Source: Phycisphaera sp. (lineage in GTDB: Bacteria; Planctomycetota; Phycisphaerae; Phycisphaerales; SM1A02). From it: a stretch of DNA of 64,000 bases. Position numbers and translations under genes: made by a program. This document shows, piece after piece, positions 8,643-26,884 of this stretch (position 1 is the stretch's first letter; each line of letters begins with the position of its first letter). The stretch spans positions 124,001-188,000 of the forward strand of contig WGMP01000012.1 of NCBI GenBank assembly GCA_016124975.1, read 5' to 3'. The notes below the pieces were generated by a model that worked only from the letters and a program-made list of their open reading frames with translations, did not search any database and was not told the DNA's origin.

Positions 8643-8770
8643 TGCCGACCGGTTGAACTCCCTGATGGAAACCGCTTCGAACTCCAGATGGCATTCTCGG
8701 CGCGCCAGGGGGGTGTAGGCCGATTCCGTCGAGAGCTGCGCACGGGTGCTGATCGGAACGCTGGCGAGAC
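8643..8770. repeat. Dispersed repeat, copy R1
   Basis: This is a partial, diverged copy of the family described at 21981-22362. It contains GACCGGTTGAACTCCC, then GAAACCGCTTCGAACTCCAGATGGC, the GCGCGCCAGGGGGGTG block, and the end block GGTGCTGATCGGAACG. Its hairpin arm is degenerate. It lies between the M50-type gene and the 3' end of the first S41 gene, within an otherwise gene-free stretch (8481-8787). Confidence 0.6.
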
Positions 8771-8787
8771 GATGCGCCACTTGCGTC

Positions 8788-10359
8788 CTACCGGGGAATC
8801 GCATCGCGCTCGCGCAGCGCCTTGATCGCAACCTCGACCGCACGCGCGCCGCCGTCGTCGTCGGGGACAAGGATGTCGGGCTCGACGGGCCCGCCGTTCT
8901 CGGGGGCGCCCGACGCGCCGAGGAAGTACGCAGTGCAGAAACTGACGATGAGGCCGCTGTTGGGCAACTGGGCGTATCCCACGTCGCCGAGTTCATTCGC
9001 TCGCGCACCGGTCGGCCGCCCGACGACGAGCATCATCTGAAAGGTCTTCGCGACATCGGCCGTCATGCGAGCGGATGAGTATGTGCCCGGTCCGATCAGG
9101 AGCGCGGAAGGGCCGTCAAAGCGTCGCCGGATATCCGGATTCACCGCGATCGGCTCGTCCTTGTTGATCCAGATCTGCTCGCCGAATGCGAGTCTCCCGT
9201 AGTCCCCCAAGAAGAGCGGCCGCGAGAGAGAGGCCCACCAGACGAGGGATCTCTCCATGTACTCCTCGTAGGCTTGGGAGCGCTTCCAGAGCTTGCCTCC
9301 GAAGAGACGGTAGGGACGGTCGCTCACCGATGCGAGCAGCAGTTCGCCGTTCTCGCTGTTGCCGCCGCCGTTGGCGCGGATGTCGACGATGAGACCGCGG
9401 GCCTTACGCGACTCGAGTTCCGTGAACACGCGGTCGAGTTCCTTCGCCCACGCGGCTTCGGTCCCCGAACTCATCGAGTCCCAGGTCAGCAGGCCGATGT
9501 CCTCGCCCGACGCATCGCCCACCCAGCGGAAGGACCACGGGAGCTTCGAAGGCTGTCCGGAGGATCCCGCACCGCCCTCGGCGGAAGTTGCGACATCGAA
9601 CGGGTTGCTGTGTGTCGAAGCCACGACGCCTGGATCGTCGATCTCGATCATCGCACCCGACGCGTCGCGCAGCAGGATGCGATACGGCGCCTCGAGTCCC
9701 ATGCTCCAGAGATCCACCGCAGCGGACCTGGCAATGCTGTCCCGCAGCGATGCCTCGGTCTCGGAAGAGACCATGGAGCGCAGCCGCCCGCGAAGTTCCG
9801 CCGCATCAACTCCCGCAAACGAGACGAGCGTCGCGTCCTCCGGAAGTGATTCGACGCCGTCCTTTGCACGAAGCGACAGCGCGCTTCCATCGTCGATGAA
9901 CCGATACGACGGCAGCCGTCCGCCGCCCGCCACCCACGCGTTCCACTCGGCGGTCGGCACGAAGGTGTAGATGTGTCCGACGCCATACGAGGCGGCGAGC
10001 TCGTTGACGAGCGCCGAGAATCGGCGTCGATCGAGTGGGCGGTCGATCGACGCCTTGAGCCGATCACGCGTCCTCGCGACATGATCGAGCCTCGCATGCT
10101 TCTCGAGATCGGGTGCGGTCTCGAGCTGGAGTTGACAGAACCAGTCGAGATCCGCGCGCAGCGCGTCAGGCTCGTGGAGCGTCCCGGCGACAACCTTGTC
10201 CGACTCAGGAAAGGGGTTCCGGATTGCGGCCACGCGGAGGTCATTGATCGAGCATCCGCTGATGAGCATGAATGCCACGATCGCAACGGAGGCGACTGCC
10301 GCACCTGCTGCAAGCCGTCGCCATCGCCGAAGAGTCTCGCGTTGATTGAAGTGTGACAT
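8788..10359 (-). CDS. S41-family (C-terminal processing/tricorn-like) peptidase, lipoprotein
   Basis: The 523-residue protein has a basic leader, a hydrophobic helix and lipobox LISGC, so it is probably anchored in a membrane facing the periplasm. The C-terminal half is an S41 domain: DIRANGGGNSENG is the core glycine motif, GPGTYSSARMTAD carries the likely nucleophile (Ser429), and GRPTGA follows. The conserved tail is PENGGPVEPDILVPDDDGG. No PDZ domain is obvious. It is a tandem paralogue of the next gene upstream (10404-12026). Most of the two genes is clearly diverged, but a block around 9351-9535 is nearly identical to 10971-11155. Confidence 0.88.
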   Translation of the reverse strand: MSHFNQRETLRRWRRLAAGAAVASVAIVAFMLISGCSINDLRVAAIRNPFPESDKVVAGTLHEPDALRADLDWFCQLQLETAPDLEKHARLDHVARTRDRLKASIDRPLDRRRFSALVNELAASYGVGHIYTFVPTAEWNAWVAGGGRLPSYRFIDDGSALSLRAKDGVESLPEDATLVSFAGVDAAELRGRLRSMVSSETEASLRDSIARSAAVDLWSMGLEAPYRILLRDASGAMIEIDDPGVVASTHSNPFDVATSAEGGAGSSGQPSKLPWSFRWVGDASGEDIGLLTWDSMSSGTEAAWAKELDRVFTELESRKARGLIVDIRANGGGNSENGELLLASVSDRPYRLFGGKLWKRSQAYEEYMERSLVWWASLSRPLFLGDYGRLAFGEQIWINKDEPIAVNPDIRRRFDGPSALLIGPGTYSSARMTADVAKTFQMMLVVGRPTGARANELGDVGYAQLPNSGLIVSFCTAYFLGASGAPENGGPVEPDILVPDDDGGARAVEVAIKALRERDAIPR

Positions 10360-10403
10360 GCTGTGCCTGCGGACAAGGGATGATCGGCCGACTTCGGAAG
10401 CCG

Positions 10404-12026
10404 TCAGGGCTGTGCCGGCTGCGCATCGCGCTCGCGCAGCGCCTTGATCGCGACCTCGACCGCGCGCGCGCCGCCGTCGTCGTCGGGGACGAGGATGTCC
10501 GGCTCGACGGGTCCGCCGTTCTCGGGGTCACCCGCGGCGCCGAGGAAGTACGCAGTGCTGAAGCTGACGATGAGGCCGCTGTTGGGCAACTGGGCGTAGC
10601 CGCATTCACCGATCGAGTTGACCGGTTCGCCTGTCGGCCGCCCGACCAACAGCGCCATCTTGTAGCTCTTCGCCATGTCCGCGGTCATGTTCGCGGAAGA
10701 GAAGGTCCCCGGCCCGACCAGCAAGGCGACCGGGCCGTTGAAGCGGCGCTTGAGGTCAGGGTCGTTCGAAGGTGGAACATCCTTGGCGAACCACCGCTGC
10801 TCGCCCAGATCGAGATCGCCGATCCCCATGAAGCTCCTCCACGGCAGGATGCGGGCCCACCACTCGAAGGACGCCTCCATGAACGCGTCGTAGGCCCTCG
10901 ACCGCTTCCAGAGCTTGCCGCCCGTGGCACGGTAGGGATTGTCGCTCACCGACTCGAGGAGCAGCCTGCCGTTCTCGCTGTTGCCGCCGCCGTTGGCGCG
11001 GATGTCGACGATGAGACCGCGGGCCTTGCGCGACTCGAGTTCCGTGAACACGCGGTCGAGTTCCTTCGCCCACGCGGCTTCGGTTCCCAAACTCATCGAG
11101 TCCCAGGTCAGCAGGCCGATGTCCTCGCCCGACGCGTCGCCGACCCAGCGGAACGACCATGGATCGGCCGCGGGCTTGGCGGCTGCGCTGCCCTGGTCTC
11201 CGGCCTCGTCGTCCGCCGAGACACGCTCGAATGTCCTCCGCTTGCGCTGCGCAGGAATGCCCGCGTCCTTGATCTCCACGATCGCGCCCGTCTCGTCGCG
11301 AAGCACGATGTCATAGGGCGCCTCGAGTCCCATGCCCCACAGAACGACCGGTGCGGTGCTGGGGATGTTTCCCTGCAGGGAGGCCTCGGTCTCGGCGGAG
11401 ACCGAGGCCCGCATGCGAGCACGGAGCTCGTCAGCGCCGATTCCCGCGAAGGACACGAGCGTCGCGCCTTCGGGAAGGGGAGCGAGGCCATCCCGCGCTT
11501 GGATCGACAGGGTGTTTCCATCGTCGATGAACCGATACGACGGCACCCGGCCTCCGCCTGACGCCCACGCGTTCCAGTCGGCGGCGGGCGTCAGCGTGTA
11601 GATGTGTCCGGCGCCGTAGGACGCCGCAAGCTGGTCGACGATCGCCGAGAAGCGGCGTCGGTCGAGCGGCCGGTCGATCGAGGCCTTCAGCCGTTCGAGC
11701 GTCGCGGTGGCGTGGTCGAGCCGCGTGTACTTCTCGATGTCCGGCGTCGCCTCGAGTTGGAGCGCGTGGAAGTGGTCGAGATCTGCGCGCAGCGCCTCGG
11801 GGTCATGCAGCTGCGCGATGGCCGCATCGTCCGTGGCAGGAAACGGCTCCCGCATGCCGGCCGCGCGGAGGTCATGGACCGAGCAACCGCTGCACGAGAT
11901 GAGGGTCGTCGCGCCGAGCAGCGTGAGAGCAGCGCCTGCCAGAAGCGCGCGTCTCGGTCGACGCCGCATGGAGAGCGTTGGGGAAGGAGACGGGAAGCGT
12001 TCCGGCGATTGGTTGTCGGCGTTCAT
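10404..12026 (-). CDS. S41-family peptidase, lipoprotein (paralogue of 8788 gene)
   Basis: The protein has about 540 residues from ATG at 12026. ATG at 11969 is an alternative that starts directly at the RRRPRR signal-peptide leader; neither has a clear ribosome-binding site. The hydrophobic segment ends in a Cys-containing lipobox-like stretch (LISCSGC). The S41 motifs are complete: DIRANGGGNSENG, GPGTFSSANMTAD, GRPTGEP, and the same PENGGPVEPDILVPDD tail as its neighbour. It lies 44 bases upstream of the first S41 gene on the same strand, which fits a tandem duplication and perhaps co-transcription. A central insert (about residues 265-295) differs from the paralogue. Confidence 0.87.
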   Translation of the reverse strand: MNADNQSPERFPSPSPTLSMRRRPRRALLAGAALTLLGATTLISCSGCSVHDLRAAGMREPFPATDDAAIAQLHDPEALRADLDHFHALQLEATPDIEKYTRLDHATATLERLKASIDRPLDRRRFSAIVDQLAASYGAGHIYTLTPAADWNAWASGGGRVPSYRFIDDGNTLSIQARDGLAPLPEGATLVSFAGIGADELRARMRASVSAETEASLQGNIPSTAPVVLWGMGLEAPYDIVLRDETGAIVEIKDAGIPAQRKRRTFERVSADDEAGDQGSAAAKPAADPWSFRWVGDASGEDIGLLTWDSMSLGTEAAWAKELDRVFTELESRKARGLIVDIRANGGGNSENGRLLLESVSDNPYRATGGKLWKRSRAYDAFMEASFEWWARILPWRSFMGIGDLDLGEQRWFAKDVPPSNDPDLKRRFNGPVALLVGPGTFSSANMTADMAKSYKMALLVGRPTGEPVNSIGECGYAQLPNSGLIVSFSTAYFLGAAGDPENGGPVEPDILVPDDDGGARAVEVAIKALRERDAQPAQP

Positions 12027-12183
12027 AGGGCGAACTCGTGTGTCGCGAATCGGTGGGCACTCGTGCCGGGGGAGCGACGCCGCGACGATTGGGAAATCGT
12101 ATTGAAGCGTTTTGTACAACGCACCCTGATTCGGTTCGCGCGCGTTTCGCGCGCCTGTCCACGCGGTCCGCCACTCCCCGATC

Positions 12184-12240
12184 GGGGGCGAAGGGCGGTT
12201 CTTTCGCTGCCTGAGCGCGGGGTGCTGAGCGGAACAGGGG
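12184..12240. repeat. Dispersed repeat, copy R2 (end block only)
   Basis: GGGCGAAGGGCGGTTC, then TTTCGCTGCCTGAGCGCGG, then GGTGCTGAGCGGAAC line up with the last 55 bases of copies R3 and R5 (CGATTCCTTCGCTA...GGTGCTGATCGAAACG). The rest of the repeat is missing. It lies in the 330-base gap upstream of the second S41 gene and downstream of the serine-hydrolase gene. Just left of it is a short GCGCGC...GCGCGC hairpin at about 12136-12153. Confidence 0.5.
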
Positions 12241-12357
12241 CGAATTGGCGACGAAGTCTCGACCCGCTGAGGTTGGTCCGAACCACCGCACGAGACCGGC
12301 CCCATCGCGGTCGCCACCAATGCCGGCATGGGAGACGCGCCGCACCCAAACGGTTGA

Positions 12358-13746
12358 TCACCGCTCGTTCGTCGCCGGACCGAGCAGTCGCGCGAAGAAC
12401 TCCTCGTCCTTGAAGTCGAGGTTCAATCTCGAGTAGTCGCCCGCCATCACCAACCTAGGCATGTCCGCGTTGGCGAATCGCACGATGACGAGCTTCTCGA
12501 CCGGGTCGATCCACAGGCGTTGCTGGCCCGCGCCCGCGGCCATGACGAGGTCGGGCAGGCGTCCCGGCACGATGCCCTTGTCGCTCACCTGGTCGGATGA
12601 CCGGGCTCGCTCGGATCCCGCCCCGTCGGCGACGCCCGAGCCCGGCTTGTCCGAGGGCTTGTTCAGCCAGAAGGTGAACCCGTATGCGGGATTCGACGAC
12701 GAACTCACGAAGCAGCCAGCGAGACTTTCCTTCGGCAGCAACTGCTTGTCCTCCCACAAGCCGCCGAGCCGAACGAGTTCGCCGTACTTCGCCCACTGCC
12801 GCGCCGTGAGCACCGCGCCGTCGCCCATCGCCCGGTCCCCCGAGCCGTCGCGTGCCCACTTCAGGTCCGTCAGGCCGATCGGCGTAAGGATCTTGCGGTT
12901 CAGGTAGTCCCATGGTCGTTCGGGTGCCGTGCCCGCGGCCTGCGCCTTCGCTTCGAGCTTCCGCTTGAAGAACTCGCCGAAGGCGTAGAGATGAACCTCG
13001 CTGTACGCGAACGTCGTGCCCGGCTCGGCGACCGCGGGCAGCCCGAGCACCAGGGCGTAGAGATCCTTCTTTTTCTCCGCCCAGAGCCGCCGCGGGGCTT
13101 CCAGCCCGCTCGAGAACGACAGGAGGTGCCGCACCGTGATCTTCGACTTCCGTGGGTCCGCCTGCCACTCCGTGATCGTCTCGGCGACGGGCTCGTCGAG
13201 GGTGAAGAGGCCGTCCTCAATGGCAGCGACCGCCACCGGTCCCCAGAAGCTCTTGGTGCCAGAGGCGATCTGATAGGCCTTGTCGGGGTTGGATCCCTCG
13301 ACGTGCTGCTCGAAGACGATCTCGCCGTCCTTCATGACGAGCAGGCACAGCCCCGCATGCTGCGCCGAGTACTCGGATGCCGCCGCATAGCGTGCGATCT
13401 CCTCGGCGGACCCCTTCGCGACGGCGGGCGCGCTGAGCTTCGCCTTCGGCGCGTCGGCCTCGGGCTTCGCGTTCTTGCCGCCCATGCCGGCGATGGCGCG
13501 GAACTCGGCGCGGGTGACCTTCCCGTCGCCGTCGCGGTCGAGGCGGTCGAACAGGTCGGGAAGGCGCTGGGTTCCGGGGAACTTCCTGAGCTCGTCGGCC
13601 GAGAGCGAGCCATCGCCGTTCGCGTCGAGCCTCGGGAAGACGGAATCCGGATCGCGCCTCGGTGGATCGTTGGACTGTGCGTGCGCCCGCGATGCGACGA
13701 GCGCTGCGAGAAGGGCGATGGAAAGTCTCTGAATGATCGGTTGCAT
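12358..13746 (-). CDS. EF-hand + beta-lactamase-fold serine hydrolase, secreted
   Basis: The 462-residue protein starts at ATG 13746 with a signal peptide (IALLAALVASRAHAQS). Two canonical calcium EF-hand loops follow: residues 41-52 (DANGDGSLSADE) and 70-81 (DRDGDGKVTRAE). From about residue 110 the protein is a class-C beta-lactamase/esterase-type serine hydrolase with SGTK (Ser162, Lys165) and a possible YSE second motif. Close relatives are annotated as 'serine hydrolase' and many are esterases or peptidases, so antibiotic resistance should not be inferred. Calcium-binding modules before this fold suggest an extracytoplasmic, calcium-stabilised enzyme. The dockerin-tailed esterase lies 23 bases upstream on the same strand, probably in an operon. 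Confidence 0.85.
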   Translation of the reverse strand: MQPIIQRLSIALLAALVASRAHAQSNDPPRRDPDSVFPRLDANGDGSLSADELRKFPGTQRLPDLFDRLDRDGDGKVTRAEFRAIAGMGGKNAKPEADAPKAKLSAPAVAKGSAEEIARYAAASEYSAQHAGLCLLVMKDGEIVFEQHVEGSNPDKAYQIASGTKSFWGPVAVAAIEDGLFTLDEPVAETITEWQADPRKSKITVRHLLSFSSGLEAPRRLWAEKKKDLYALVLGLPAVAEPGTTFAYSEVHLYAFGEFFKRKLEAKAQAAGTAPERPWDYLNRKILTPIGLTDLKWARDGSGDRAMGDGAVLTARQWAKYGELVRLGGLWEDKQLLPKESLAGCFVSSSSNPAYGFTFWLNKPSDKPGSGVADGAGSERARSSDQVSDKGIVPGRLPDLVMAAGAGQQRLWIDPVEKLVIVRFANADMPRLVMAGDYSRLNLDFKDEEFFARLLGPATNER

Positions 13747-13769
13747 GCGGATGAACTCCCGAAGCCTCG

Positions 13770-14819
13770 CTACGGGCGGCAGTCTCCCCATGCGGCGAGC
13801 AGTGCGCCGAGGTCCCCTCCATCCACCAAACCGTTGTCATCGAGGTCTGACGCAGGGTCCGTAGAGCCCCAGGCGGCGAGGAGCATCCCGAGATCCGCGC
13901 CATCGACGCTGCCGTCCCCGTTGATGTCCGCCGGGCAGGGCGTGCACACAGTCTCTTCTGACACGATCTGCGAGAAGAAACGGGTCCAGACGAGGTCCGC
14001 AGCGCCCGGCTGGTACACGTGGCTTGACCCCTGCACCTCGGTGAACCAGACAGGCGCAGCTCCCATGTACTTGCTCGTGACATAGGTGCGAGTGATGCCG
14101 TAGGTCAGTTGCTCGGTGACGGTGCTCTCGAATGTCGCCTTGTTGTTTGCAACCCAGAAAGCCAGCTGCTCTTGGTCCTGCTGGCTGCGTGGCCGCGCGT
14201 TCGCTCCCGTTCCCGTCGTGAAGTTCTCGTTGCTACCCCGCCAGATCCAGACGGGCATGGGAGGGGCGGGGGAAATCTCTGATTCGCTTCCGCCATATGC
14301 GGTGATCCAGCCGCCCGATACGGGCGCGATCGCAGCAACCAGGTCTGGCCTGTAGGCGGCGAACGAGTTCGTCATCATGGCGCCGTTCGAGAAGCCCGTC
14401 ATGTAGGTGCGGCATGCAGCCGTTCCGTAGTCGAGCTGCACCCGCGCGATCAGCGCGGCAAGGAAGCTCAAGTCGTTCGGCGGGGCGCCGGTGAAGTCGA
14501 AACTGTTCCACGCGAACTTGCCGTTCGTGCCGACAGGAACGCCGCCTGTTGGATAGACGACCACAATTCCCGACTGGTCGCTCACGGCATCCCAGCCTGA
14601 AGTGGCCTGGAAGTCGGGGCCTGTCGAGAACGACGGATGCAACGCGACGACGAGGGGGTGTTGGGCGCCGGCCGAGAAGCCTGGAGGCAGGTGCACGATG
14701 TAGGAGCGGGTCAGCCCTTCATGCTGCATCGTCGCATTGATGTTGGTTTGCGCGAGCGCCTGTGACCCGCACAGCATCACGAGTACGACGGCCGCGACCG
14801 GGTATGTCTGCATTGTCAT
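13770..14819 (-). CDS. Secreted PHB-depolymerase/LpqC-type esterase with dockerin-like tail
   Basis: The 349-residue protein starts at ATG 14819, supported by GAGG about 8 bases upstream. It has a signal peptide (VVLVMLCGSQALAQ), then an alpha/beta-hydrolase of the poly(3-hydroxyalkanoate) depolymerase/feruloyl-esterase group. The oxyanion region is VVALHPSFS, the nucleophile Ser144 is in GFSNGAM, and the His is probably in GSSHVYQPG. The last about 60 residues are two GDG-type calcium loops (DINGDGSVDGADLGMLLAAWG and DLDDNGLVDGGDLGALLAAWG), a dockerin-like cell-surface or sorting module common in this group of bacteria. The natural polymer substrate cannot be named from sequence. It is followed closely by the EF-hand serine hydrolase. 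Confidence 0.85.
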   Translation of the reverse strand: MTMQTYPVAAVVLVMLCGSQALAQTNINATMQHEGLTRSYIVHLPPGFSAGAQHPLVVALHPSFSTGPDFQATSGWDAVSDQSGIVVVYPTGGVPVGTNGKFAWNSFDFTGAPPNDLSFLAALIARVQLDYGTAACRTYMTGFSNGAMMTNSFAAYRPDLVAAIAPVSGGWITAYGGSESEISPAPPMPVWIWRGSNENFTTGTGANARPRSQQDQEQLAFWVANNKATFESTVTEQLTYGITRTYVTSKYMGAAPVWFTEVQGSSHVYQPGAADLVWTRFFSQIVSEETVCTPCPADINGDGSVDGADLGMLLAAWGSTDPASDLDDNGLVDGGDLGALLAAWGDCRP

Positions 14820-14999
14820 CGAATTGTCCTCAGAGGACCGAACGCGGACAGGAGGATGGCATTGCCCTGCGCGAACGGCAAACGCGGAGTTCAATGGCGA
14901 TCTGACGAACCTCGGTCCGTGTGCAGTTTGGTGAAGGATCCATAACTGGCCCGTTGAGTCCGTGGCCGCCACCTGAAGTCCGTCGGACGGGGGTCCGAT

Positions 15000-15400
15000 C
15001 TTCAACGTTCAAAGACGCGCATGCACGCTTGAGCAGGCCGAGGTGCCTTGGGACCAAGTTCATGGGGCCCTTTCGATCTCCCCCTGATCTCTTCCGCGTG
15101 TGAACCCATTCAGAGAGCGCGTGAGAGCGGGGCGGCCATTTCGCCGTTTCCCCACCGTTCGGATCAGACCCTTCTGCTCTCTCCACAAACCCGAGAGCGC
15201 GCAACCCCCGCCACGACGCGCCGGCAGGGGGTTGCTCTCGGGTCAGCCTGTAAACAAACCGGTCGGCCCCATTCGAGGCCGGCCGGTTGAACTCCCCAAG
15301 CGAAAGGTCTTCAAGGCTTGGATGGCGTTCTGATCGCGCCAGAGTAGGGTGCAGGCCGATTCCTTCGCTATCGGGGAGCGGGGTGCTGATTTGAACGGTG
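15000..15400. repeat. Dispersed repeat, copy R3, with two strong hairpins
   Basis: The left part (about 15105-15245) is rich in GAGAGCG-type motifs and holds a long imperfect hairpin, ACCCGAGAGC...CAACCCCC against GGGGGTTGCTCTCGGGT (about 15187-15242). Next comes a second hairpin, AACCGGTCGGCC against GGCCGGCCGGTT (15257-15289). The family's right block follows: AACTCCCCAAGCGAAAGG, TCTTCAAGGCTTGGATGGCG, GCGCGCCAGAG, then GGTGCTGATTTGAACGG, ending near 15400. The next bases are the truncated beta-helix gene. The layout matches R5 best. The rest of the 14820-15411 gap shows no gene. Confidence 0.65.
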
Positions 15401-15411
15401 GTGAAATGGCG

Positions 15412-18216: not shown

Positions 18217-18249
18217 GCGCGCCAGGCGCGCCGGTCTCGCCGCCGCTAG

Positions 18250-18537: not shown

Positions 18538-18539
18538 CG

Positions 18540-19724: not shown

Positions 19725-19750
19725 GGGAAGCGCTCCTTTCTCAGGGCATC

Positions 19751-20532: not shown

Positions 20533-20617
20533 CGCGTGGTCTTGCTGCAGCTTCGGAGGGATAGGGCGAGTGTTCCAGGCGTTCGGGCGGGCGAGTCGGT
20601 CCGCTCGATTGACAAAG

Positions 20618-20645
20618 TTGCAAAAGTGCCAAACGAGTCTATCAT
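20618..20645 (+). promoter_or_regulatory. Candidate promoter of the winged-helix regulator
   Basis: TTGCAA (20618-20623), a 16-base spacer and TATCAT (20640-20645) resemble a sigma70 promoter. Transcription would begin about 3-6 bases before the ATG at 20656, implying a nearly leaderless mRNA. A TTGACA at 20609-20614 is an alternative -35 but lacks a well-spaced -10. This is moderate evidence only. Confidence 0.4.
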
Positions 20646-20655
20646 AGTGTGCTCG

Positions 20656-21306
20656 ATGCCTCGACCGGCACGCATCCGCATCAGCTCGACGAAAGCGTGG
20701 AAGGCGTTTCTCTCGCCCGTGCGGCGGCAGATCGTCGAGTCGATGCAGCGGCAGGGGCCCTGCTCGATTGCGGAGGTCGCGCGCGACATCGGACGGCCGG
20801 CCGACGGGCTCTACAGGCATGTCGCCGTGCTGGTGAAGTCTGGCTTCCTGCGCGAGATCGGCGCGCGCGCTGCACAGCGCAACATCGGGCGCATGTTCGA
20901 CGCGACGGCCAACGACTTCCTCGCTCCGCGCGTCAGTCGGCGCGCATCGGCGGACGCGCGGAACACCGTTGTCCAGACAGCGGAGGCGCTCGCCAAGTCG
21001 TCGATCCGCGCGCTCCGAGGGTCCGCAGCGGCGGGTCGCATCCACTGCGAGCGGGGCGACCGCAACTTCGTCGTCATGCATGTCAACTCGTGGCTGACTC
21101 CGGCGCGCTTCAGCGAGGTGCGCGCACTCGTCATCCGTCTGGCGAGCATCATCGAGCGTGGCCGGACCGACCGCACCGGAGAACCGTACGAAGTGTTCGC
21201 CATCGCCGCGCCCGTGACGCGCAGGGGCGCGCCTGGCCGCACGGGCCGCACGAAGAGCCAGAAGCGCAGCGACAAGAAGCTGCGCGCACGAGGTTCGCGC
21301 GTATGA
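20656..21306 (+). CDS. Winged-helix (ArsR-like) transcriptional regulator
   Basis: The 216-residue protein starts at ATG 20656. Upstream in-frame codons exist but overlap the promoter. Residues about 12-80 form an ArsR-type winged helix: AFLSPVRRQIVESMQ, then GPCSIAEVARDIGRPADGLYRHVAVLVKSGFL. The central region (residues 90-185) looks like a ligand or dimer domain with INR-like HCERGDRNFVVMHVN. The tail is very basic (TRRGAPGRTGRTKSQKRSDKK). No metal-binding cysteines are seen, so it need not be a metal sensor. It is divergent from the small membrane protein and probably regulates that pair. Confidence 0.75.
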   Translation: MPRPARIRISSTKAWKAFLSPVRRQIVESMQRQGPCSIAEVARDIGRPADGLYRHVAVLVKSGFLREIGARAAQRNIGRMFDATANDFLAPRVSRRASADARNTVVQTAEALAKSSIRALRGSAAAGRIHCERGDRNFVVMHVNSWLTPARFSEVRALVIRLASIIERGRTDRTGEPYEVFAIAAPVTRRGAPGRTGRTKSQKRSDKKLRARGSRV

Positions 21307-21387
21307 AGCGGATCGCGTGTTACGTCGTCAGCCTGGTCGTCAGGGGTGCGGACTGTGAACAAGTCGGTCGACCTCGCAGCAGGCCTG

Positions 21388-21933
21388 TCATCGTGGCGCT
21401 GCGCTGAGTCCGAAGAACAGAAACCCGTTCCAGTGCTTCCCGGTGATCGCCTTCGCGACCGCGCTCAGCGAGCGGTAGCGGTGCCTGCCGAGCATGAACC
21501 CGTCGTCCGTCACCGTCACGCGGTAGTCGCGATCACCGAAGTGCCTCACGAGCACCGTGCCGGGTGGTGGAATGCGTCGGTCCCGGCCCTCGGCGGTGCA
21601 CGGTCGCTCGAACGCGTCCGCGGCTGGTCTGGGCATGGGAACGCAGGGTGGCAGGGTCTCGAGGTAGCTCGCGAAGCCGGCCTCACAGCCGAAGTCCTTC
21701 GCCACCTCCCGGGCGACCGCCAGCGCCACCGGCATTCGGTGGCTCAGGTCGATCTCCCGAAGGCGGGTCCTGATCGCGCGGACGAGCCAGCCTCGGTTTC
21801 CCGAAGTCGTCTCACGGCCGAAGGTGTGGCGATAGACCTCCCGCAGCTCGCGCGGTCGCATCTGCTCGACTCGGACGAGGCGGGCGGCGAGGGCAGGGTC
21901 GACGATGATGGATGGGGTAGGAGCGGTGGGCAT
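21388..21933 (-). CDS. DUF2924 family protein (mobile-element associated)
   Basis: The 181-residue protein starts at ATG 21933. The N-terminal part reads RVEQMRPRELREVYRHTFGRE, then SGNRGWLVRAIRTRLREI. The C-terminal part has IPPPGTVLVRHFGDRDYRV, then GRHRYRSLSAVAKAITGKHWNGFLFFGL, the conserved DUF2924 domain. This family has no established biochemical role but is typically found beside phage and integrative-element recombinases. It is the only full-length copy in the window; two truncated relatives occur at 7143 and 26096. All three lie next to a copy of the dispersed repeat. No recombinase gene is present nearby. Confidence 0.85.
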   Translation of the reverse strand: MPTAPTPSIIVDPALAARLVRVEQMRPRELREVYRHTFGRETTSGNRGWLVRAIRTRLREIDLSHRMPVALAVAREVAKDFGCEAGFASYLETLPPCVPMPRPAADAFERPCTAEGRDRRIPPPGTVLVRHFGDRDYRVTVTDDGFMLGRHRYRSLSAVAKAITGKHWNGFLFFGLSAAPR

Positions 21934-21980
21934 GGAGCAGGGATCGAAAGTCCCCCTACCTATTTCATTTGCCCCTGCGC

Positions 21981-22362
21981 GACCGCCGTCAACCAGAGTG
22001 TCTGAAGAATGCCACGTTCGTGTCCGCTGCTGTGAACCGAGAGCAGAGAGCGAGAGAGAGCAACCCCGCGTGAACGCGGCTTGGGGGCGCTTCGGGCGCG
22101 ATCCGAACGCGGTTGATGCGAGAACCCGGGAGAGCGCAAGAGAGCGTGAAGATGCCCCCAAGATGAAGCCTTGGGCATCAGGATCGATGTTCCGGCACCC
22201 CGCACCAATAAACAAGCAGGTTGGCCGTTCTCGGCCAACCCGCTTTGGCAACTCCCCCAGCGAAACGTCTTCAAGGCTTAGATGGCGGTCTGAGCGCGCC
22301 AGAGGGGGTGCAGGGCGATTCCTTCGCTACCCGAGCGCAGGGTGCTGATCGAAACGATCCTT
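21981..22362. repeat. Dispersed repeat, copy R5 (most complete)
   Basis: Left block (21981-22200): GCTGCTGTGAACCGAGAG, GAGAGCGCAAGAGAGCG, GATGCCCCCAAGATG and TTGGGCATCAGGATCGATGT. Hairpin block (about 22215-22245): GGTTGGCC-GTTCTC-GGCCAACC, followed by CTTTGGCAACTCCC. Right block (22256-22362): CGAAACGTCTTCAAGGC, GATGGCGG, GCGCGCCAGAGGGGGTGCAGGG, ATTCCTTCGCTACCC and GGTGCTGATCGAAACG. The left and hairpin blocks are shared with R4 (and weakly with R6); the right block is shared with R1, R2 and R3. It lies between the DUF2924 gene and the BlaI promoter. Confidence 0.7.
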
Positions 22363-22465
22363 GGACGAGCCTCGGGTGTTTGGCGGCTGGCGATGCCGTG
22401 CCTGTTTCCGGCCGGCTGCTGCGGATTCAGGTAGCGCTTCGTGTGCGAAGGGTCATAGACCACGC

Positions 22466-22511
22466 TTGACTTCTACGACATATAGTCGTATTCTGCACGA
22501 CACTCAGTCGT
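22466..22511 (+). promoter_or_regulatory. blaI-type promoter with twin operators
   Basis: TTGACT (22466-22471), a 17-base spacer and TATTCT (22489-22494) form a near-consensus promoter for the BlaI/M56 operon. Two dyads share the half-site ACGAC...GTCGT: ACGACATATAGTCGT (22475-22489), inside the spacer, and ACGACACTCAGTCGT (22497-22511), over the start point. Their centres are 22 bases apart, about two helical turns. BlaI/MecI repressors bind just such paired dyads, so autorepression is very likely. Confidence 0.8.
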
Positions 22512-22544
22512 ATTCCGGCTCTGTCGATCCAAGGAGACCTCCGC

Positions 22545-22919
22545 ATGACCGCGAACTCTCTCGCAAACGCCGAACTTTCCGTCATGGAACTGCTGTGGGG
22601 CCATGGAAGCCTGACGGCGCGCCAGATCCAAGACGAACTCTACGGCGAGTCGGATCGCTCGCAGCACGGCACGGTGCAGCGCCTGCTGCAACGCCTGGAG
22701 GAAAAGGAAATGGTGAAGCGCGAGAAGACCGGGGCCGCGAACGCGTTCTCGGCGTGCATCTCGCGCGAGGAGTACGCGGGTGGGCAGCTCGAGACGCTCG
22801 CCGAGCGCCTCGCCGGCGGCTCGATCGCGCCGCTTCTCTCGCACCTCATCGAGCAGAAGCGCCTGAGCCGCACCGAGCTCCGCCGCCTGCGTGAACTCCT
22901 CGACAGGAGGAAGCCATGA
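22545..22919 (+). CDS. BlaI/MecI/CopY-family repressor
   Basis: The 124-residue protein has the usual length for the family. The winged helix is ELSVMELLWGHGSLTARQIQDEL, then GTVQRLLQRLEEKEMVKREK, followed by a helical dimerisation tail (LAGGSIAPLLSHLIEQKRLS). Start ATG 22545 follows AAGGAG. The stop overlaps the next gene's start (ATGA at 22916-22919), so it is translationally coupled to the M56 protein. In known systems the M56 sensor protease triggers cleavage or release of this repressor. The regulon here is unknown and need not involve beta-lactams. Confidence 0.9.
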   Translation: MTANSLANAELSVMELLWGHGSLTARQIQDELYGESDRSQHGTVQRLLQRLEEKEMVKREKTGAANAFSACISREEYAGGQLETLAERLAGGSIAPLLSHLIEQKRLSRTELRRLRELLDRRKP

Positions 22920-24895
22920 CGCTCACGGTGCTGGAGTACGCGCTTGGGAACGCGTTGCTGGCCTTGCCGCTCGCGGCGCTCGCATGGACGATCGGCCGCA
23001 CCCGGCGAAACCCGTCGGTCGCGCACTTCGCCTGGGTGCTCGTCATGATCCGCCTCGTCATGCCGCCGATCGCGTCGGTGCCATGGTTGTCGATCCAGGT
23101 TCCGGTCTCGGCCGCGGTCGTCGTCCAGCCGTCCGCTCCGCGCGCCGCTGATTCGTCGGCGTTCGACTCGCGCGTCGCCGAGCAACCGACGGAATCGGCC
23201 GACGACTCCGCGATCGGCATCGCGACCGGCGCCGCGACCCTGAACGAGGCCGCCGTGCAGGGTTCAGCCGGCCTTTCCTCCGAACCACAGGTCGCCGGGC
23301 CCATCCTGGTCGATCGATGGTCGGCGCTCGGTCTCGTCTGGCTTGCGGGAACGGCTCTCGTGATCGCCGTCTCGGCCGCGCGGCTGCTGCGCTTCCAGCG
23401 CATGTTGCGCGCCGCCAGCTCGCCCGCCGATCCGCGGGTCCGTCGTCTGGCGGAAACGGCCGCGGCAGACCTCGGCTTGCCGCTCCGCGCCGAGATCGTC
23501 GTGATCCCGGCCAGCACCGTGCCGTTCGTGTGGAGCTGCTTCGGGCGCCCGCGCATCGTGCTTCCTGCGTCGATCGTCTCCGAGATGTCCGACGACGAGC
23601 TGCTCCTCGTCCTGACGCACGAGCTCGCCCATGTGCGCCGCTGCGACCACCTCGTCCGCTGGCTCGACTGGGCCGTCGTCGCGTGGCTCTGGTGGAACCC
23701 GCTCGCATGGATCGCGCGCCGAGGTCTTCGAAGGACCGAGGAACTCGCCTGCGATGCGCTCGTGCTGCGCACGCGCGGTGCGGCGCAACACACCTATGGA
23801 AGCTGCCTCCTCTCCGTTGCGGAGGCATTGAACGGGTCTGCGTTCCGCGCGCCGGCCCAGATCTGCACGATGGGTGACGGCGGATCACTCGAGGAAAGGA
23901 TCAGATTCATCATGTCCGAAGCATCCAGCAGCCGTCCCTCCATGCCATTGCGGGTTCTTGCCACCGCCGCCGCGAGCGCTTCGATGCTCGCCGGCGTGGT
24001 CTGCGCCGGACCGGCCCAGCCGGTCTTGGCCGCCGTTCCGTCCGAGCAGCCTTCCGCGCAAGCGGCGACATCGAGCGCCGCCGCGCCACGCGACGCCGAT
24101 CGCTCGAGCCACACGCTCGAAGCGTCCATCGAGGGCGCGAAGTCGCTGCATGTCGAATCGATGAACGGCGCGATCAAGATCGTGCGCGACGATTCCGCGA
24201 AGGTCATGCAGGTGACGGCTGTGATCGATTGGACGGATGTCTCGCTGTGGGGGAGCTTCCCGGAGGGGACGACGATCAATGTGGGCGATGGCGAGACGAC
24301 AATCACGACGCGGTCCGCAGGAAAGCGGCAGCGGCTCTCCGCCGCCCAGCGCAAGGAGTTGATCGACAGCGCGAAGCTTGTCGCAGAGAAGGATGCAGGT
24401 GGACGCGTGACCGTGCGCGTCGAGCTTCCCGAGTCCGAAGGCTGGCGTCAGTTGCCTGCCGTCAACATCACGATCCGCACCGCGGCGCTCGCCGATGTGC
24501 ATGCCGAGTCGATGAACGGCGCGATCAAGACGATCGGCGACCTCGGCAGCCTGCATGTGGAGACGCTGAACGGTGCGATCGATGTCTCGGGCATCGCGTC
24601 CGCGCTGCGTGCCGAATCGACGAACGGCGAGGTCCGGATCTCGCTCGCCGACAACGCCGCCGCGTCGGTCGATGCCGAGTGCACGAACGGCCGCCTCGTG
24701 CTCGAGTTGCCCGCATCGTGGAACGGAAAGGTGAATGCCTCGACGACCTTGGGAACAATGGTCGTGAAGGACATAGACGGGACGACGACCCCCGACCTGA
24801 CGGGTGCATCCTTCAAGGGCACGGTCGGCTCGGGCAAGGGCGCGGTCGCCTCGCTGGATGTCACCAATGGTTCGATCGAGGTGCGCAAGCGCTGA
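22916..24895 (+). CDS. M56 (BlaR1-type) membrane metalloprotease fused to a DUF4097-like domain
   Basis: The protein has 659 residues. The N-terminal half is M56: transmembrane segments around residues 5-25 and 140-160, then HELAH (235-239) with ELACDALVL downstream as the further ligand. A third membrane segment lies near residue 350 (VLATAAASASMLAGVVCAG). Instead of a penicillin-binding sensor the C-terminal roughly 260 residues form repeats (LHVESMNGAIKIV, VHAESMNGAIKTIG, LHVETLNGAIDVSG, LRAESTNGEVRIS) of the DUF4097/DUF4098 beta-helix type found in putative adhesins. This domain probably lies outside the membrane and may be the sensor. It is coupled to the BlaI gene upstream. Confidence 0.88.
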   Translation: MTLTVLEYALGNALLALPLAALAWTIGRTRRNPSVAHFAWVLVMIRLVMPPIASVPWLSIQVPVSAAVVVQPSAPRAADSSAFDSRVAEQPTESADDSAIGIATGAATLNEAAVQGSAGLSSEPQVAGPILVDRWSALGLVWLAGTALVIAVSAARLLRFQRMLRAASSPADPRVRRLAETAAADLGLPLRAEIVVIPASTVPFVWSCFGRPRIVLPASIVSEMSDDELLLVLTHELAHVRRCDHLVRWLDWAVVAWLWWNPLAWIARRGLRRTEELACDALVLRTRGAAQHTYGSCLLSVAEALNGSAFRAPAQICTMGDGGSLEERIRFIMSEASSSRPSMPLRVLATAAASASMLAGVVCAGPAQPVLAAVPSEQPSAQAATSSAAAPRDADRSSHTLEASIEGAKSLHVESMNGAIKIVRDDSAKVMQVTAVIDWTDVSLWGSFPEGTTINVGDGETTITTRSAGKRQRLSAAQRKELIDSAKLVAEKDAGGRVTVRVELPESEGWRQLPAVNITIRTAALADVHAESMNGAIKTIGDLGSLHVETLNGAIDVSGIASALRAESTNGEVRISLADNAAASVDAECTNGRLVLELPASWNGKVNASTTLGTMVVKDIDGTTTPDLTGASFKGTVGSGKGAVASLDVTNGSIEVRKR

Positions 24896-24951
24896 GTCGC
24901 TGCGTTGTTGCGGAGTTTCCTGTGTTCTTCCGTCAGTTCTTTGGACTTTTC

Positions 24952-26139
24952 ATGCGATCCATGGTTCGTCACGCTGCGCACGCGCTGGTACTTGCGCTCT
25001 GCTTCCTCGCCACGATTCCAGGATGCGCGTCGACCCGCGGCCAGGAGCATGCGCCCGACCCCGCCATGGAGGTGGTCCAGGTCCTCAACGAGTTGGTGGT
25101 GAGCTACGAGACGGCGATGGCCGAGGGGCAGCCAGCGAAGGCGCGCGAAGCCGCGGAGCAGCTGCTTGCGCGGGAGCCTGCGCCATGGGCCCAGTTCATG
25201 CTGGCCGCGGCGTGGGCAGCCGAGGGAAATCGCAACGAGGCGTTCCGCGTGCTGTCCGTTGCGATCGAGTCGTTCGGCCGCGACCCGGTCGGAGCCGGTC
25301 CAGTGGCGATCGACTACGCAACCAGCTTGGGGTCTGCAGACAACTCGAGTTGGGAGAGCCTGCGGTCGGATCCACGCTTCGCGGCCTTGGTTGCCCGGGC
25401 GAAGGCCGTCGCGTGGCAGCCCGAGCCACTGGCCTTCGACGCGGGTCCAGCCGAGCAACCGGTTCGCATGAAGCGCCCGGCGGTCGAATCGGAACCGTTG
25501 CGCACGCTGCGGGAGGCGTACAAGCTTGACGCGGTGGTCGCGGGCGCGACCGACGACATCGATCGCGTTCGGCGCATGTGCCACTGGGTGCACGAGCGGA
25601 CCTCGCATCAGGGCTGGAACGGGGAGCTCCCGAGCGATGCACTTGGGCTGCTGCGGCTCGCCGAGAAGGGCGGCCAGTGGCGCTGCGTCGAGTTTGGCAT
25701 TGTCATGGCCGAGTGTCTGAACGCCGTGGGCATTCCGGCGAGGACCGTTGGCGCCAAAGTACGAAACGTCGAGACCGAGCTGTTCGGCGCCGGGCATGTC
25801 TTCGCCGAGGCGTGGCTCGATGATCGCCAGCGCTGGGTCTTCGTCGACGCGCAGATGGACATCGTGGGCGTCGGATCAGACGGCACTCCGATGAACTCGG
25901 TCGAGTTCCGAGACTCTCTCTCGCAACCCAATCCGCCGATTGCCTATCACCCGGCACTCGCGCTCTGCCTCTACTACTTTGATTCCAACTTCGATGCGGC
26001 CAACGGCAAGCGCACCAGCATCGTGCTTGGCCCGGTCGGCTCGAAGGTGCCGACGAAGTTCCAGCGTGTGCATCCCTCTCCCGCGCCGGATCGCTTTACG
26101 CATCGGCTCGCTGACTTCTATGCACCACCCGTGCCGTGA
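24952..26139 (+). CDS. Transglutaminase-like lipoprotein
   Basis: The 395-residue protein starts at ATG 24952. The signal peptide ends in IPGC, a plausible lipobox. Residues about 35-140 are helical and TPR-like (AREAAEQLLAREPAPWAQFMLAAAW). The C-terminal half has a transglutaminase-like Cys-His-Asp triad: Cys245 in QWRCVEFG, His282 in GAGHVFAEAW, and Asp299 in WVFVDAQMD. Such proteins act as cysteine proteases or amidases or are inactive scaffolds; the substrate is not predictable. It lies 56 bases after the M56 gene on the same strand, so it may belong to the BlaI-controlled operon. Its 3' end overlaps the truncated DUF2924 gene by 44 bases on the opposite strand. Confidence 0.8.
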   Translation: MRSMVRHAAHALVLALCFLATIPGCASTRGQEHAPDPAMEVVQVLNELVVSYETAMAEGQPAKAREAAEQLLAREPAPWAQFMLAAAWAAEGNRNEAFRVLSVAIESFGRDPVGAGPVAIDYATSLGSADNSSWESLRSDPRFAALVARAKAVAWQPEPLAFDAGPAEQPVRMKRPAVESEPLRTLREAYKLDAVVAGATDDIDRVRRMCHWVHERTSHQGWNGELPSDALGLLRLAEKGGQWRCVEFGIVMAECLNAVGIPARTVGAKVRNVETELFGAGHVFAEAWLDDRQRWVFVDAQMDIVGVGSDGTPMNSVEFRDSLSQPNPPIAYHPALALCLYYFDSNFDAANGKRTSIVLGPVGSKVPTKFQRVHPSPAPDRFTHRLADFYAPPVP

Positions 26140-26497
26140 GCCGTGCGTGAAGGTCCGTAGCTGACTCGGCCCGAGCGCATCTGTTCCCTCCATCCGAGGG
26201 GCTCGGGGTCGGGCGTTGATACGGGACCGCGGCGGGATCGATTGTGCATCGCAGGTCTTTCGCGATCGCCTCCGCGCACCGGAGCGCCTCGGGCATCATG
26301 TGGCTGAGCTCGATCTCCTCGAGCCGTCGGATGATCCGGCGGCGCAGCCAGGCCCCGTTGCCCGACGACGTCTCCTGCCCGAAGAGGCGTGCGAACACCG
26401 CCCGCATCTCGCGGGGCGTCATCCGTTCGATCCGCCCGATCATGGCGCGGAAGGTGGGATCGTCGATCTGGACAGGCAGCAGTCGTCTCGTTCGCAT
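26096..26497 (-). pseudogene. Truncated DUF2924 gene
   Basis: From ATG 26497 the first about 90 residues (RIERMTPREMRAVFARLFGQE, then SGNGAWLRRRIIRRLEEIELSHMMPEAL) match the N-terminal half of the DUF2924 protein at 21388. The C-terminal DUF2924 core is missing. It is replaced by about 40 unrelated residues that run into the 3' end of the transglutaminase-like gene. I read it as a gene cut from the 3' side by a rearrangement. It is transcribed away from tRNA-Asn, about 310 bases downstream of it on the same strand. Confidence 0.65.
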
Positions 26498-26574
26498 GAA
26501 TCGGCTCCTGGAAAAGCGAAGTCCCTCTATCTGCTACTTCTGCCGGTGCGCGAGGTTTGTCAGGTCCAGAGGCC

Positions 26575-26811
26575 GATGAACACGCGAGACGGGGCGCGAA
26601 ATCGTGTTAAAGAGAACAGAGAGCACTCGAGAGCGGCGCTGCGAGACGGCCCCATGCGGTCGACTTCGCGGACCCATTCCCCGATGCGAAGACGCCGATG
26701 CGAGAGCGTGAGAGAGCGCGCCGATGCCTCTCCGCGCGTCCCAATGCGTGTTTCAAGAGCCCGGCATGTGAAAAAGCGGGTTGGCCTGTTTGGGCCAACC
26801 CGCTTTGGTAA
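26575..26811. repeat. Dispersed repeat, copy R6, attached to tRNA-Asn
   Basis: This is a diverged left block (GAGAGCACTCGAGAGCGGC, GCGAGAGCGTGAGAGAGCGC, GTGTTTCAAGAGCCCGGCATG) followed by the hairpin GCGGGTTGGCC...GGCCAACCCGC and CTTTGGTAACTCCCC. It runs directly into the 3' end of tRNA-Asn. Here the hairpin is the tRNA's terminator. R4 and R5 carry the same hairpin and the last bases of the tRNA without the tRNA itself, so this copy is the likely parent. Confidence 0.6.
26771..26806 (-). terminator. Rho-independent terminator of tRNA-Asn
   Basis: On the minus strand a perfect 14-base stem (AAAGCGGGTTGGCC with its complement, 6-base loop) begins 5 bases after the tRNA and is followed by a run of five T (26775-26771). 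Confidence 0.85.
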
Positions 26812-26884
26812 CTCCCCGAACTGGACTCGAACCAGTGACATGCGAGTTAACAGCTCGCCGCTCTACCAACTGAGCTATCGGGGA
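26812..26884 (-). tRNA. tRNA-Asn (anticodon GTT)
   Basis: A 73-base cloverleaf. Acceptor arms are TCCCCGA and TCGGGGA with G as the discriminator base, as expected for Asn. The D-arm is GCTC...GAGC. The anticodon arm GCGAG-CTGTTAA-CTCGC gives GTT. The T-arm is ACTGG-TTCGAGT-CCAGT. CCA is not encoded. A promoter and terminator flank it. It appears to be the anchor of the dispersed repeat family. Confidence 0.97.

What the first reader, a model, noticed from the sequence alone, without database searches (positions are those of the whole stretch)
8643..26884. Accessory region paced by a dispersed repeat linked to tRNA-Asn
Six related non-coding elements (R1 8643, R2 12184, R3 about 15000, R4 18250, R5 21981, R6 26575) recur every 3-4 kb and separate small, unrelated cargo modules: S41 proteases, serine hydrolase plus esterase, dockerin proteins, fic with a regulator pair, and BlaI/M56/transglutaminase-like genes. 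R4 and R5 share about 260 bases including a 30-base hairpin. R4 and R5 also carry that hairpin with the last bases of tRNA-Asn, where it is the native tRNA terminator. The layout suggests repeated insertion or exchange at a tRNA-Asn 3' end, like serial integrative islands or cassette arrays, but no integrase is present. It could be an undescribed mobilisable cassette type.
Basis: partly seen in the sequence, partly recalled or inferred. Interest (0 to 1): 0.78.

Follow-up and report, generated by a model that had tools for sequence, protein, structure and literature searches.

The report
Integrase-less gene cassettes stacked at tRNA-Asn
Behind one asparagine-tRNA gene, planctomycete bacteria have stacked small foreign gene packages end to end, each bordered by the docking site of a phage that uses the same tRNA gene, so the stack looks like a phage-linked gene-exchange platform rather than ordinary chromosome.

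Summary
The repeats are real, but they are two sequences meeting at one point: a ~108-nt 'arm' (or its last ~28 nt), then GGGGAGTT (the 3' end of tRNA-Asn), then a terminator-like hairpin and tail, all in tRNA direction. In the own genome the five strong arm hits lie within 33 kb downstream of tRNA-Asn. Genes upstream of the tRNA are shared in 64 of 66 genome pairs, downstream in 12 of 66. Earlier states of the stack exist: G002 and G011 lack one or more modules, and G005 lacks exactly one 1.4-kb cassette that G003 has. Fic, esterase and S41 are 87-93% identical to another genus, SerS 70%. In genus g17 the same arm closes a 45-kb prophage whose tRNA-Asn end carries DUF2924 and a large serine recombinase; DUF2924 remnants sit beside R5 and R6. 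Best reading: serial insertion of integrase-less, cis-mobilisable-type cassettes through the attachment system of that phage family. It works like the Dehalococcoides ssrA islands, with a tRNA-Asn target, a tailed-phage owner of the site, and cassettes that bring their own terminators. Recombinase activity and present mobility are not shown.

The parts
26811..26885 (-). tRNA-Asn(GTT), the anchor; its acceptor 3' strand GGGGAGTT is the shared core (R6)
   Evidence: the other three G000 matches to the tRNA query are tRNA-Lys, -Gly and -Trp
26773..26810 (-). type A terminator-like hairpin directly after tRNA-Asn (R6)
   Evidence: -27.2 kcal/mol; not listed by the consensus terminator scan
26096..26497 (-). 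truncated DUF2924 gene (profile 4-71 of 135)
   Evidence: E 1.4e-4, under the curated cut-off;
22250..26810 (.). cassette R6-R5: DUF2924 remnant, transglutaminase-like, M56/BlaR1-like, BlaI-like genes; not present between tRNA and the R5-type tail in G002
22250..22357 (-). R5 arm + core (full-length attachment half)
   Evidence: E 3.9e-30
21985..22249 (-). R5 type A hairpin (22214-22245) and tail
   Evidence: (terminator-like site)
21388..21933 (-). DUF2924 gene (181 aa), remnant of the integration module
   Evidence: E 3.9e-27; 87% to the G002 and 81% to the G195 copy, which also follow a type A tail
18503..22249 (.). cassette R5-R4: DUF2924, HTH regulator, a ~176-aa family also found in arrays of G001, G003, G004, G005, G011, Fic (SoFic-like)
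18540..19724 (-). Fic protein, 93% to G189 and 90% to both G007 copies; DNA homology ends at the R4 core
18503..18533 (-). R4 short-form attachment half (last ~28 nt of the arm + core)
18239..18502 (-). R4 type A hairpin (18467-18498) and tail
   Evidence: FG-GAP only
15290..15398 (-). R3 arm + core
   Evidence: E 4.2e-27
15068..15289 (-). R3 type B hairpin and tail; the same tail follows tRNA-Asn in G011 (89%) and G073 (90%)
12175..15289 (.). cassette R3-R2: esterase, beta-lactamase-fold serine hydrolase with EF hands
12175..12235 (-). R2, arm with internal deletion + decayed core
   Evidence: E 1.3e-7
8656..12174 (.). cassette R2-R1: two tandem S41 peptidase paralogues (one scanned as S41, the other by 68% identity)
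8656..8760 (-). R1 arm + core
   Evidence: E 2.2e-24

Best explanation
The region is a stack of small elements inserted one after another at the 3' end of tRNA-Asn. Each element's circular form would carry attP = arm + GGGGAGTT + terminator hairpin and tail. Recombination with the tRNA 3' end puts the element's own hairpin/tail behind the rebuilt tRNA and leaves arm + GGGGAGTT + the old tail at the far end. Repetition gives tRNA|tail-cargo-arm|tail-cargo-arm|..., youngest next to the tRNA. No recombinase was found in the stack of the window, so its cassettes resemble cis-mobilisable elements. The recombinase most likely comes in trans from phages of this host family that carry DUF2924 and a large serine recombinase (LSR); a prophage of that kind is bounded by the same arm in genus g17. 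The DUF2924 pieces beside R5 and R6 are probably what remains of that module. SHOWN by comparison: junction anatomy, anchoring, precise borders for several cassettes, earlier states, cross-genus sharing, and association of the arm with a DUF2924/LSR prophage. INFERRED: that the LSR performs the reaction, circular intermediates, present mobility, transfer in phage particles.
For: Arm model: strong hits (E<1e-5) in 16 of 181 family genomes and 6 of 45 genera. In G000 the five strong hits are all on C47 at 117.8-146.4 kb, tRNA-Asn being at 150.8 kb, all in tRNA direction (150 of 4935 first-look candidates were scored). Among the 12 of 16 genus genomes with a close tRNA-Asn match, 64 of 66 pairs share a protein cluster upstream and 12 of 66 downstream. 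The first long gene shared by G009, G013 and G000 behind the tRNA lies 6.3, 22.5 and 90.5 kb away. Earlier states: G002, G011; G005 against G003, one 1.4-kb cassette. Borders at the last base of the core: fic against G189 (1377 bp, 90.6%) and one G007 copy (the other 4 nt short), BlaI-arm against G002 and G011 contigs. In G195 two contigs share 145 identical nt up to the last T of GGGGAGTT, then run into different tails. Fic, esterase, S41 87-93% against 70% for SerS, G000-G189. Hairpins after the core: 31 of 47 junctions below the control 5th percentile. Site owner: G063 has tRNA-Asn + tail B + DUF2924 + LSR + terminase, portal, tail genes + arm + core + terminator, 44.7 kb from tRNA to arm. 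DUF2924 follows tRNA-Asn closely in G063, G112, G018, at 2.9 kb in G099, and follows core + hairpin in G114 with an LSR next to it. G189 and G195 LSRs are sisters of the G063 LSR (93/94, just under the starred level).
Against: No genome of the own genus has an LSR shown to belong to this site: PF07508 in 0 of 16, PF00239 in 2 of 16, at contig ends beside DUF2924, and the G002 one groups with tRNA-Met-associated LSRs. In the tree the tRNA-Asn-associated LSRs do not form one clade once unlabelled rows are counted, though deep forks are open. 8 of 16 genus genomes have no strong arm, so other element types also use the hotspot. Arms in G001 (C55), G002 (C175), G011 (C216), G149, G150, G188, G189, G195 and G201 lie on fetched stretches without tRNA-Asn. 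Viral-contig relatives of the LSR carry no clear arm: 1 weak hit in 27 loci. For esterase, S41 and the G150 M56-BlaI block the homology does not stop at a core. A 108-nt conserved arm is longer than the usual serine-integrase half-site (recalled); only the short form fits. The G195 pair could be an assembly branch. Most genomes are in tens to hundreds of contigs.
Confidence: 0.72

Rival explanations
1. The stack is a graveyard of full prophages or islands that each inserted at tRNA-Asn and then lost most of their length, recombinase included. Cassettes are remnants and do not move as units.
For: DUF2924 remnants beside R5 and R6, one truncated; decayed R2 and partial R1 tail; no recombinase match on the contig; S41 and esterase share one interval in G189 but two in G000.
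Against: Similar small cassettes (fic, BlaI-M56, GntR with membrane protein) recur beside cores in several genera, some at higher identity than SerS; independent deletions would hardly leave the same borders. G003 and G005 differ by one 1.4-kb unit ending in an arm. No phage structural gene was recognised by Pfam among the cassette proteins scanned (not all were scanned).
Confidence: 0.28
2. A tyrosine recombinase (a lost island integrase, or the cell's Xer pair) does the insertion.
For: tRNA 3' ends are the classical target of tyrosine integrases (recalled; also the start of the Islander abstract in the listing); all 16 genus genomes carry PF00589 proteins; the arm is long and has a related motif (CGTTTCGATC-like) at both ends, reminiscent of tyrosine attP arms.
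Against: No PF00589 match on C47 or on the tRNA-Asn/arm contigs of the genus except a weak one (E 1.4e-4) about 187 kb from tRNA-Asn on G013:C6. The prophage that owns the arm encodes an LSR; tyrosine recombinases of G063 were not searched. The arm resembles the tRNA clearly only over the last ~9 nt.
Confidence: 0.15
3. Homologous recombination through the ~230-nt tails and arms (for example after natural transformation) shuffles and duplicates modules; site-specific recombination matters only for the first insertion.
For: Tails and arms are long enough; G007 has a tandem copy, 99.5% over the 2185 nt before the contig ends, as unequal crossing-over would give.
Against: Many junctions join partners that share little beyond the ~8-nt core, for example arms to several unrelated hairpins, and the G195 pair.
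Confidence: 0.2
4. Chance or chromosomal repeats (terminators, REP-like) with no relation to insertion.
For: The hairpins look like terminators; repeats separate genes.
Against: E-values, one orientation, anchoring at tRNA-Asn, cross-genus cassettes.
Confidence: 0.02

Closest known systems
Dehalococcoides ssrA-specific genomic islands, DsiB/DsiA (PMC3146451; abstract and passages seen)
   Same: Tandem islands downstream of one RNA gene, bounded by copies of its 3' end; serine recombinase beside the RNA-gene end; 15 of 31 islands lack the integration module and are suggested there to be cis-mobilisable elements.
   Different: Target is tRNA-Asn, not ssrA; junctions are arm + core + own terminator rather than a 20-bp repeat; partner gene is DUF2924; the clearest owner of the site is a tailed prophage; no full module found in the own genome.
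Cis-mobilisable elements (CIMEs) and accretion (recalled; named in the PMC3146451 passages)
   Same: Cargo flanked by attachment sites, no recombinase, stacked in tandem with relatives.
   Different: Partner here appears to be a phage, not an ICE; many in one array; attL/attR function untested.
SCC elements of staphylococci, CcrAB (recalled, and PMC3146451 passages)
   Same: Serine recombinases, fixed 3'-end target, composite arrays (recalled).
   Different: Different target and accessory protein; ccr genes were not searched by name, but G000 has no PF00239 or PF07508 match.
Integron cassette arrays without integrase, CALIN (passages in PMC11389934)
   Same: Arrays of mobile cassettes lacking the integrase.
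   Different: No folded attC: arm consensus folds at -0.28 kcal/mol; cassettes hold several genes in both orientations; platform is a tRNA.
Tycheposons and other phage satellites (mentioned in a PMC11389934 passage; details recalled)
   Same: tRNA-anchored cargo elements linked to phages (recalled).
   Different: No own integrase found; replication and capsid-remodelling genes not seen among the proteins scanned.
Serine recombinases of phages WO and AcaML1
   Same: Homologous recombinase, 43-47% over 65-69% of the query.
   Different: Other hosts; their sites were not compared.

Membership tests
Cis-mobilisable element (CIME) | Flanked by attachment sites of an integrative element | tested here: met
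   R1, R3, R5 carry the arm + core that closes the G063 prophage; that the sites work is untested
Cis-mobilisable element (CIME) | No integration or transfer genes of its own | tested here: inconclusive
   No PF00589, PF07508, PF00239 match on C47; conjugation genes were not searched
Cis-mobilisable element (CIME) | Mobilised by a related element after accretion | not testable with these tools
   Needs an excision assay or reads
Dehalococcoides-type ssrA island | Target is ssrA (tmRNA) | tested here: not met
   Target is tRNA-Asn
Dehalococcoides-type ssrA island | Serine recombinase module at the RNA-gene end of complete members | tested here: met
   DUF2924 + LSR after tRNA-Asn in G063; in other genera, not in the own genome; DsiA, Mom and pseudo-tRNA not looked for
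Integron / CALIN | Folded attC sites | tested here: not met
   No conserved fold of the arm
Integron / CALIN | IntI integrase in the system | not tested
   PF00589 was searched but IntI was not separated from Xer
Phage satellite (PICI-like, tycheposon) | Own integrase | tested here: not met
   for the window's contig
Phage satellite (PICI-like, tycheposon) | Packaging by a helper phage | not testable with these tools
   -
LSR-carrying prophage family | Resolvase + Recombinase + zinc-ribbon protein and phage structural genes between att sites | tested here: met
   Met by G063 C26, not by the window, which has only DUF2924 remnants

The most novel reading that the evidence does not exclude
A phage-dependent cassette platform: a DUF2924/serine-recombinase phage family supplies in trans the recombinase that loads small, terminator-carrying cassettes (defence genes such as Fic and AbiEii, peptidases, regulators) onto tRNA-Asn across a bacterial family. 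It would be a counterpart of integrons with a tRNA gene as platform and a temperate phage as the source of the integrase and perhaps as the carrier.
Probability: 0.3. Interest if true: 0.82.

Novelty: new variant of a known kind. Interest (0 to 1): 0.62.

Why it matters
Many genomic islands lack any integrase and how they spread is an open question (stated so in the abstract of PMC11389934, listing). Here the attachment site of the cassettes can be matched to a prophage that still has a recombinase, so the helper idea becomes directly testable with one recombinase, one small partner protein and two short DNA sites. It also suggests a role in site-specific recombination for DUF2924, a family named as of unknown function that sits beside serine recombinases; 3 of the 5.39 million held papers contain the name (listing only). 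By position it also suggests that this recombinase family inserts at tRNA-Asn and tRNA-Met 3' ends.

Tried and rejected
attC-like folding of the arm: rejected, consensus energy -0.28 kcal/mol. Exact arm pattern in viral contigs: one hit, judged chance because only 19 nt match in a contig unlike these genomes (no model match at E 1 or better). Exact pattern in named genomes: 7 stretches; 6 planctomycete-type records carry the full arm, the seventh (Bifidobacterium vansinderenii) matches over 51 nt only (E 0.003) and was judged chance. Gene upstream of tRNA-Asn in 7 of the fetched loci (cluster c9) as a recombinase: judged by eye to be a copper-monooxygenase-like/EF-hand protein, not scanned. 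Arms in LSR-bearing viral contigs: 1 weak hit in 27 loci. Weak model hits (E 0.002-0.1) elsewhere in the genus were treated as noise.

Gene models come from a crude ORF picker of mine (length and GC3-GC2), so gene borders are approximate; cluster c0 (18 members, partly composition) was left out of the pair counts, and fetched lengths behind the tRNA differ a lot (2.6 kb in G002 to 50 kb in G013), which lowers downstream sharing. In the LSR tree two short rows (L074, L215) were left out and one locus (L231) gave no recombinase. In one search loci with minus-strand matches were read in the wrong direction for the core scan; repeated correctly. In one search some core positions are off by a few nt (several tRNA rows, R2, G011, G149, G073), which moves the 55-nt window slightly.
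Full report
WHERE. The window is G000:C47:124001-188000 of a 3.6-Mb, 59-contig genome without a name. Records that share the arm are titled Planctomycetota, Planctomycetaceae, Phycisphaerales and the like (one is titled Candidatus Kuenenia and one Phycisphaera mikurensis, probably names given to bins), so I take the host to be a planctomycete. 16 genomes of the genus and 181 of the family were searchable.

WHAT THE REPEATS ARE. Read in the direction of tRNA-Asn (window minus strand), a junction is [arm] GGGGAGTT [terminator-like hairpin + tail]. The arm is ~108 nt, 74% mean column identity over 11 copies, with no conserved fold. R1, R3, R5 and R0 (outside the window) have the full arm, R2 a deleted one, R4 only the last ~28 nt behind the fic stop codon. 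The tail after the core comes in unrelated kinds: A (R4, R5, R6), B (R3, start in R1), and others (R0, G004, G007). R6 is the tRNA itself. At 47 junctions, tRNA sites included, the 55 nt after the core fold at -27.1 kcal/mol on average against -17.0 for 1000 random windows of the same loci; 31 of 47 are below the control 5th percentile. A consensus scan of 8000-27200 listed only the R5 hairpin of these as terminator-like, and 3 sites in all against 9.0 in shuffles, so 'terminator' rests on the stem-loops and their T-rich tails, not on that scan. If they terminate, each new tail brings its own terminator for the tRNA.

ANCHORING. In G000 the five strong arm matches (E<1e-5: R0, R1, R2, R3, R5) lie on C47 between 117.8 and 146.4 kb, behind tRNA-Asn at 150.8 kb. 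Strong matches occur in 8 of 16 genus genomes (G000, G001, G002, G003, G004, G007, G011, G013) and 16 of 181 family genomes. They share a fetched contig with tRNA-Asn in G000, G003, G004, G007, G011 (C117), G013, G073 and G063. They do not in G001 (C55), G002 (C175), G011 (C216), G149, G150, G188, G189, G195 and G201, mostly short contigs. A tRNA-Asn match over 80% identity was found in 12 of 16 genus genomes. With my gene models, 64 of 66 genome pairs share at least one protein cluster upstream of it and 12 of 66 downstream (means 4.3 and 0.4). The first long gene shared behind the tRNA by G009, G013 and G000 lies about 6.3, 22.5 and 90.5 kb away; isolated matches to nearer G009 genes also occur in G000. 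The tRNA-Asn terminator of G009 and the hairpin displaced to the far end of the G063 prophage share their 9-nt stem arms.

SERIAL INSERTION. One search compares the G000 stack with the other loci. G002 has tRNA-Asn joined directly to the R5-type tail and DUF2924 gene (890 bp, 88%), which in G000 lie 4.6 kb downstream. G011 has tRNA-Asn joined to the R3-type tail and the start of the esterase cassette (550 bp, 89%), 11.5 kb downstream in G000. One search adds the cleanest case: G003 and G005 match through tRNA-Asn and its tail (359 bp, 84%) and again over 4.3 kb farther on (89% and 86%); between them G003 has an extra 1.4 kb with one gene, arm and core, after which a second copy of the core and hairpin (53 bp, 91%) follows. 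These are different states of one stack. Homology blocks end at the last base of the core for the fic cassette against G189 (1377 bp, 90.6%) and one G007 copy (1322 bp, 87.8%; the other copy ends 4 nt earlier), and for BlaI-arm against G002 and G011 contigs; for esterase, S41 and the G150 M56-BlaI block they end elsewhere. In G195 two contigs share 145 nt that end with the last T of GGGGAGTT and then run into tail A or another tail; one contig starts with this stretch, so an assembly branch is possible. G007 holds a tandem copy of a ~4.0-kb unit, 99.5% identical over the 2185 nt before the contig ends.

SHARING ACROSS GENERA. SerS of G000 is 70% identical to G189, 72% to G150, 73% to G073 (not found in G195 or G188). 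Cassette proteins: Fic 93%, esterase 91%, S41 87% with G189; M56 90% with G150; a 144-aa protein 85% and GntR 87% with G073; GntR 88% with G195 (the last three lie in the R1-R0 interval, outside the window). Not all are high: M56 71% with G189, BlaI 78-82%, the GntR-linked membrane protein 50-66%. The order differs: G189 has fic | S41-esterase | arm | M56-BlaI, G000 has M56-BlaI | fic | ... | esterase | S41. Of 10 cargo proteins scanned against PADLOC, 2 match defence families strongly (Fic as SoFic; AbiEii of G195), BlaI weakly, 7 not at all.

THE LIKELY RECOMBINASE. In G063 (genus g17) tRNA-Asn is followed by a type B tail, DUF2924, a 519-aa protein with Resolvase, Recombinase and zinc-ribbon domains (PHROG integrase), a small companion (PHROG 'recombinase'), and phage genes: terminase large subunit, portal, head decoration, tail tube, tape measure. 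The arm + core + hairpin lies 44.7 kb downstream. This is a complete-looking prophage whose far end is the arm of the window. In one search, 33 loci (some overlapping) around DUF2924 or resolvase matches were scanned for tRNAs: tRNA-Asn lies just upstream in 3 (G063, G112, G018) and tRNA-Met in 2 (G024, G032; strand checked); most flanks were only 1.5 kb. DUF2924 lies 2.9 kb behind tRNA-Asn in G099 and behind core + hairpin in G114 (G114 domains). Among 27 viral-contig relatives of the recombinase, 2 have tRNA-Asn and 2 tRNA-Met upstream, and none a clear arm. The recombinases of G189 and G195, which carry cassettes, are sisters of the G063 one (93/94); but 7 of 15 inner branches are open and tRNA-Asn-associated recombinases are not one clade among all 18 rows. 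In the window DUF2924 survives whole beside R5 and truncated beside R6. In the genus no PF07508 was found in 16 genomes; PF00239 beside DUF2924 at contig ends in G002 and G004, of which the G002 one groups with tRNA-Met-associated recombinases.

MECHANISM, SHOWN AND INFERRED. Shown by sequence comparison: anatomy, anchoring, precise borders of several cassettes, different states of the stack, cross-genus sharing, and ownership of the arm by a DUF2924/LSR prophage in one genome. Inferred: the recombinase acts on arm-core-tail and the tRNA 3' end; cassettes are moved in trans or by accretion; the youngest is next to the tRNA. The 28-nt short form (R4, G007 fic copies, G195, G114) would fit a serine-integrase half-site (size recalled); the extra 80 nt of the long arm is unexplained. 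A related motif (CGTTTCGATC-like) at both ends of the arm may be a protein-binding site.

KNOWN OR NEW. The closest described system is the Dehalococcoides ssrA islands: tandem, bounded by RNA-gene 3' repeats, serine recombinase DsiB at the RNA-gene end, 15 of 31 without module (PMC3146451, abstract and passages). The window does not have the ssrA target, so it is not a member, but it works like it. It also fails the folded-site test for integrons. Literature searches listed nothing in their shown rows on tRNA-Asn cassette stacks in planctomycetes; only listings were seen except for three papers of which passages were read (PMC3146451, PMC10083194, PMC11389934), and subscription journals are mostly not held. 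I rate it a new variant of a known kind.

Noticed in passing
L137 (G063:C26) about 10311-10332: About 0.2 kb beyond the prophage end of G063 lies a 22-nt exact copy of the tRNA-Asn 3' end with another upstream sequence and another hairpin, so a different element type may also have used this site.
   Followed up: partly
L129 (G073), about 9226-9242, minus strand: A 17-nt tandem copy of the tRNA-Asn 3' end directly behind the gene in G073.
   Followed up: no
L214 (G024), L217 (G032), L190 (G073:C2), L249, L256: DUF2924 or its recombinase lies downstream of tRNA-Met in several genomes and viral contigs, a likely second tRNA target of the same recombinase family.
   Followed up: partly
twelve genus genomes: tRNA-Asn itself comes in two forms about 81% identical within one genus.
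   Followed up: no
window 48789-51783: 23S and 5S rRNA genes with no 16S match in the window; an inverted repeat flanks the 23S.
   Followed up: no
window 42000-42181, 30096-30160, 60682-60909, 53443-53676: Short tandem repeats of 14, 19 and 12 nt and a GCC-rich low-complexity stretch.
   Followed up: no
G195:C155 and G189:C48 (L183-L186): A ~2,690-aa open frame followed by DUF2924 + serine recombinase, alike in two genomes of genus g60; in G195 two short attachment cores lie 19-25 kb farther on.
   Followed up: partly
window 8788-12329: Two tandem S41-type paralogues, 68% identical, inside one cassette.
   Followed up: no
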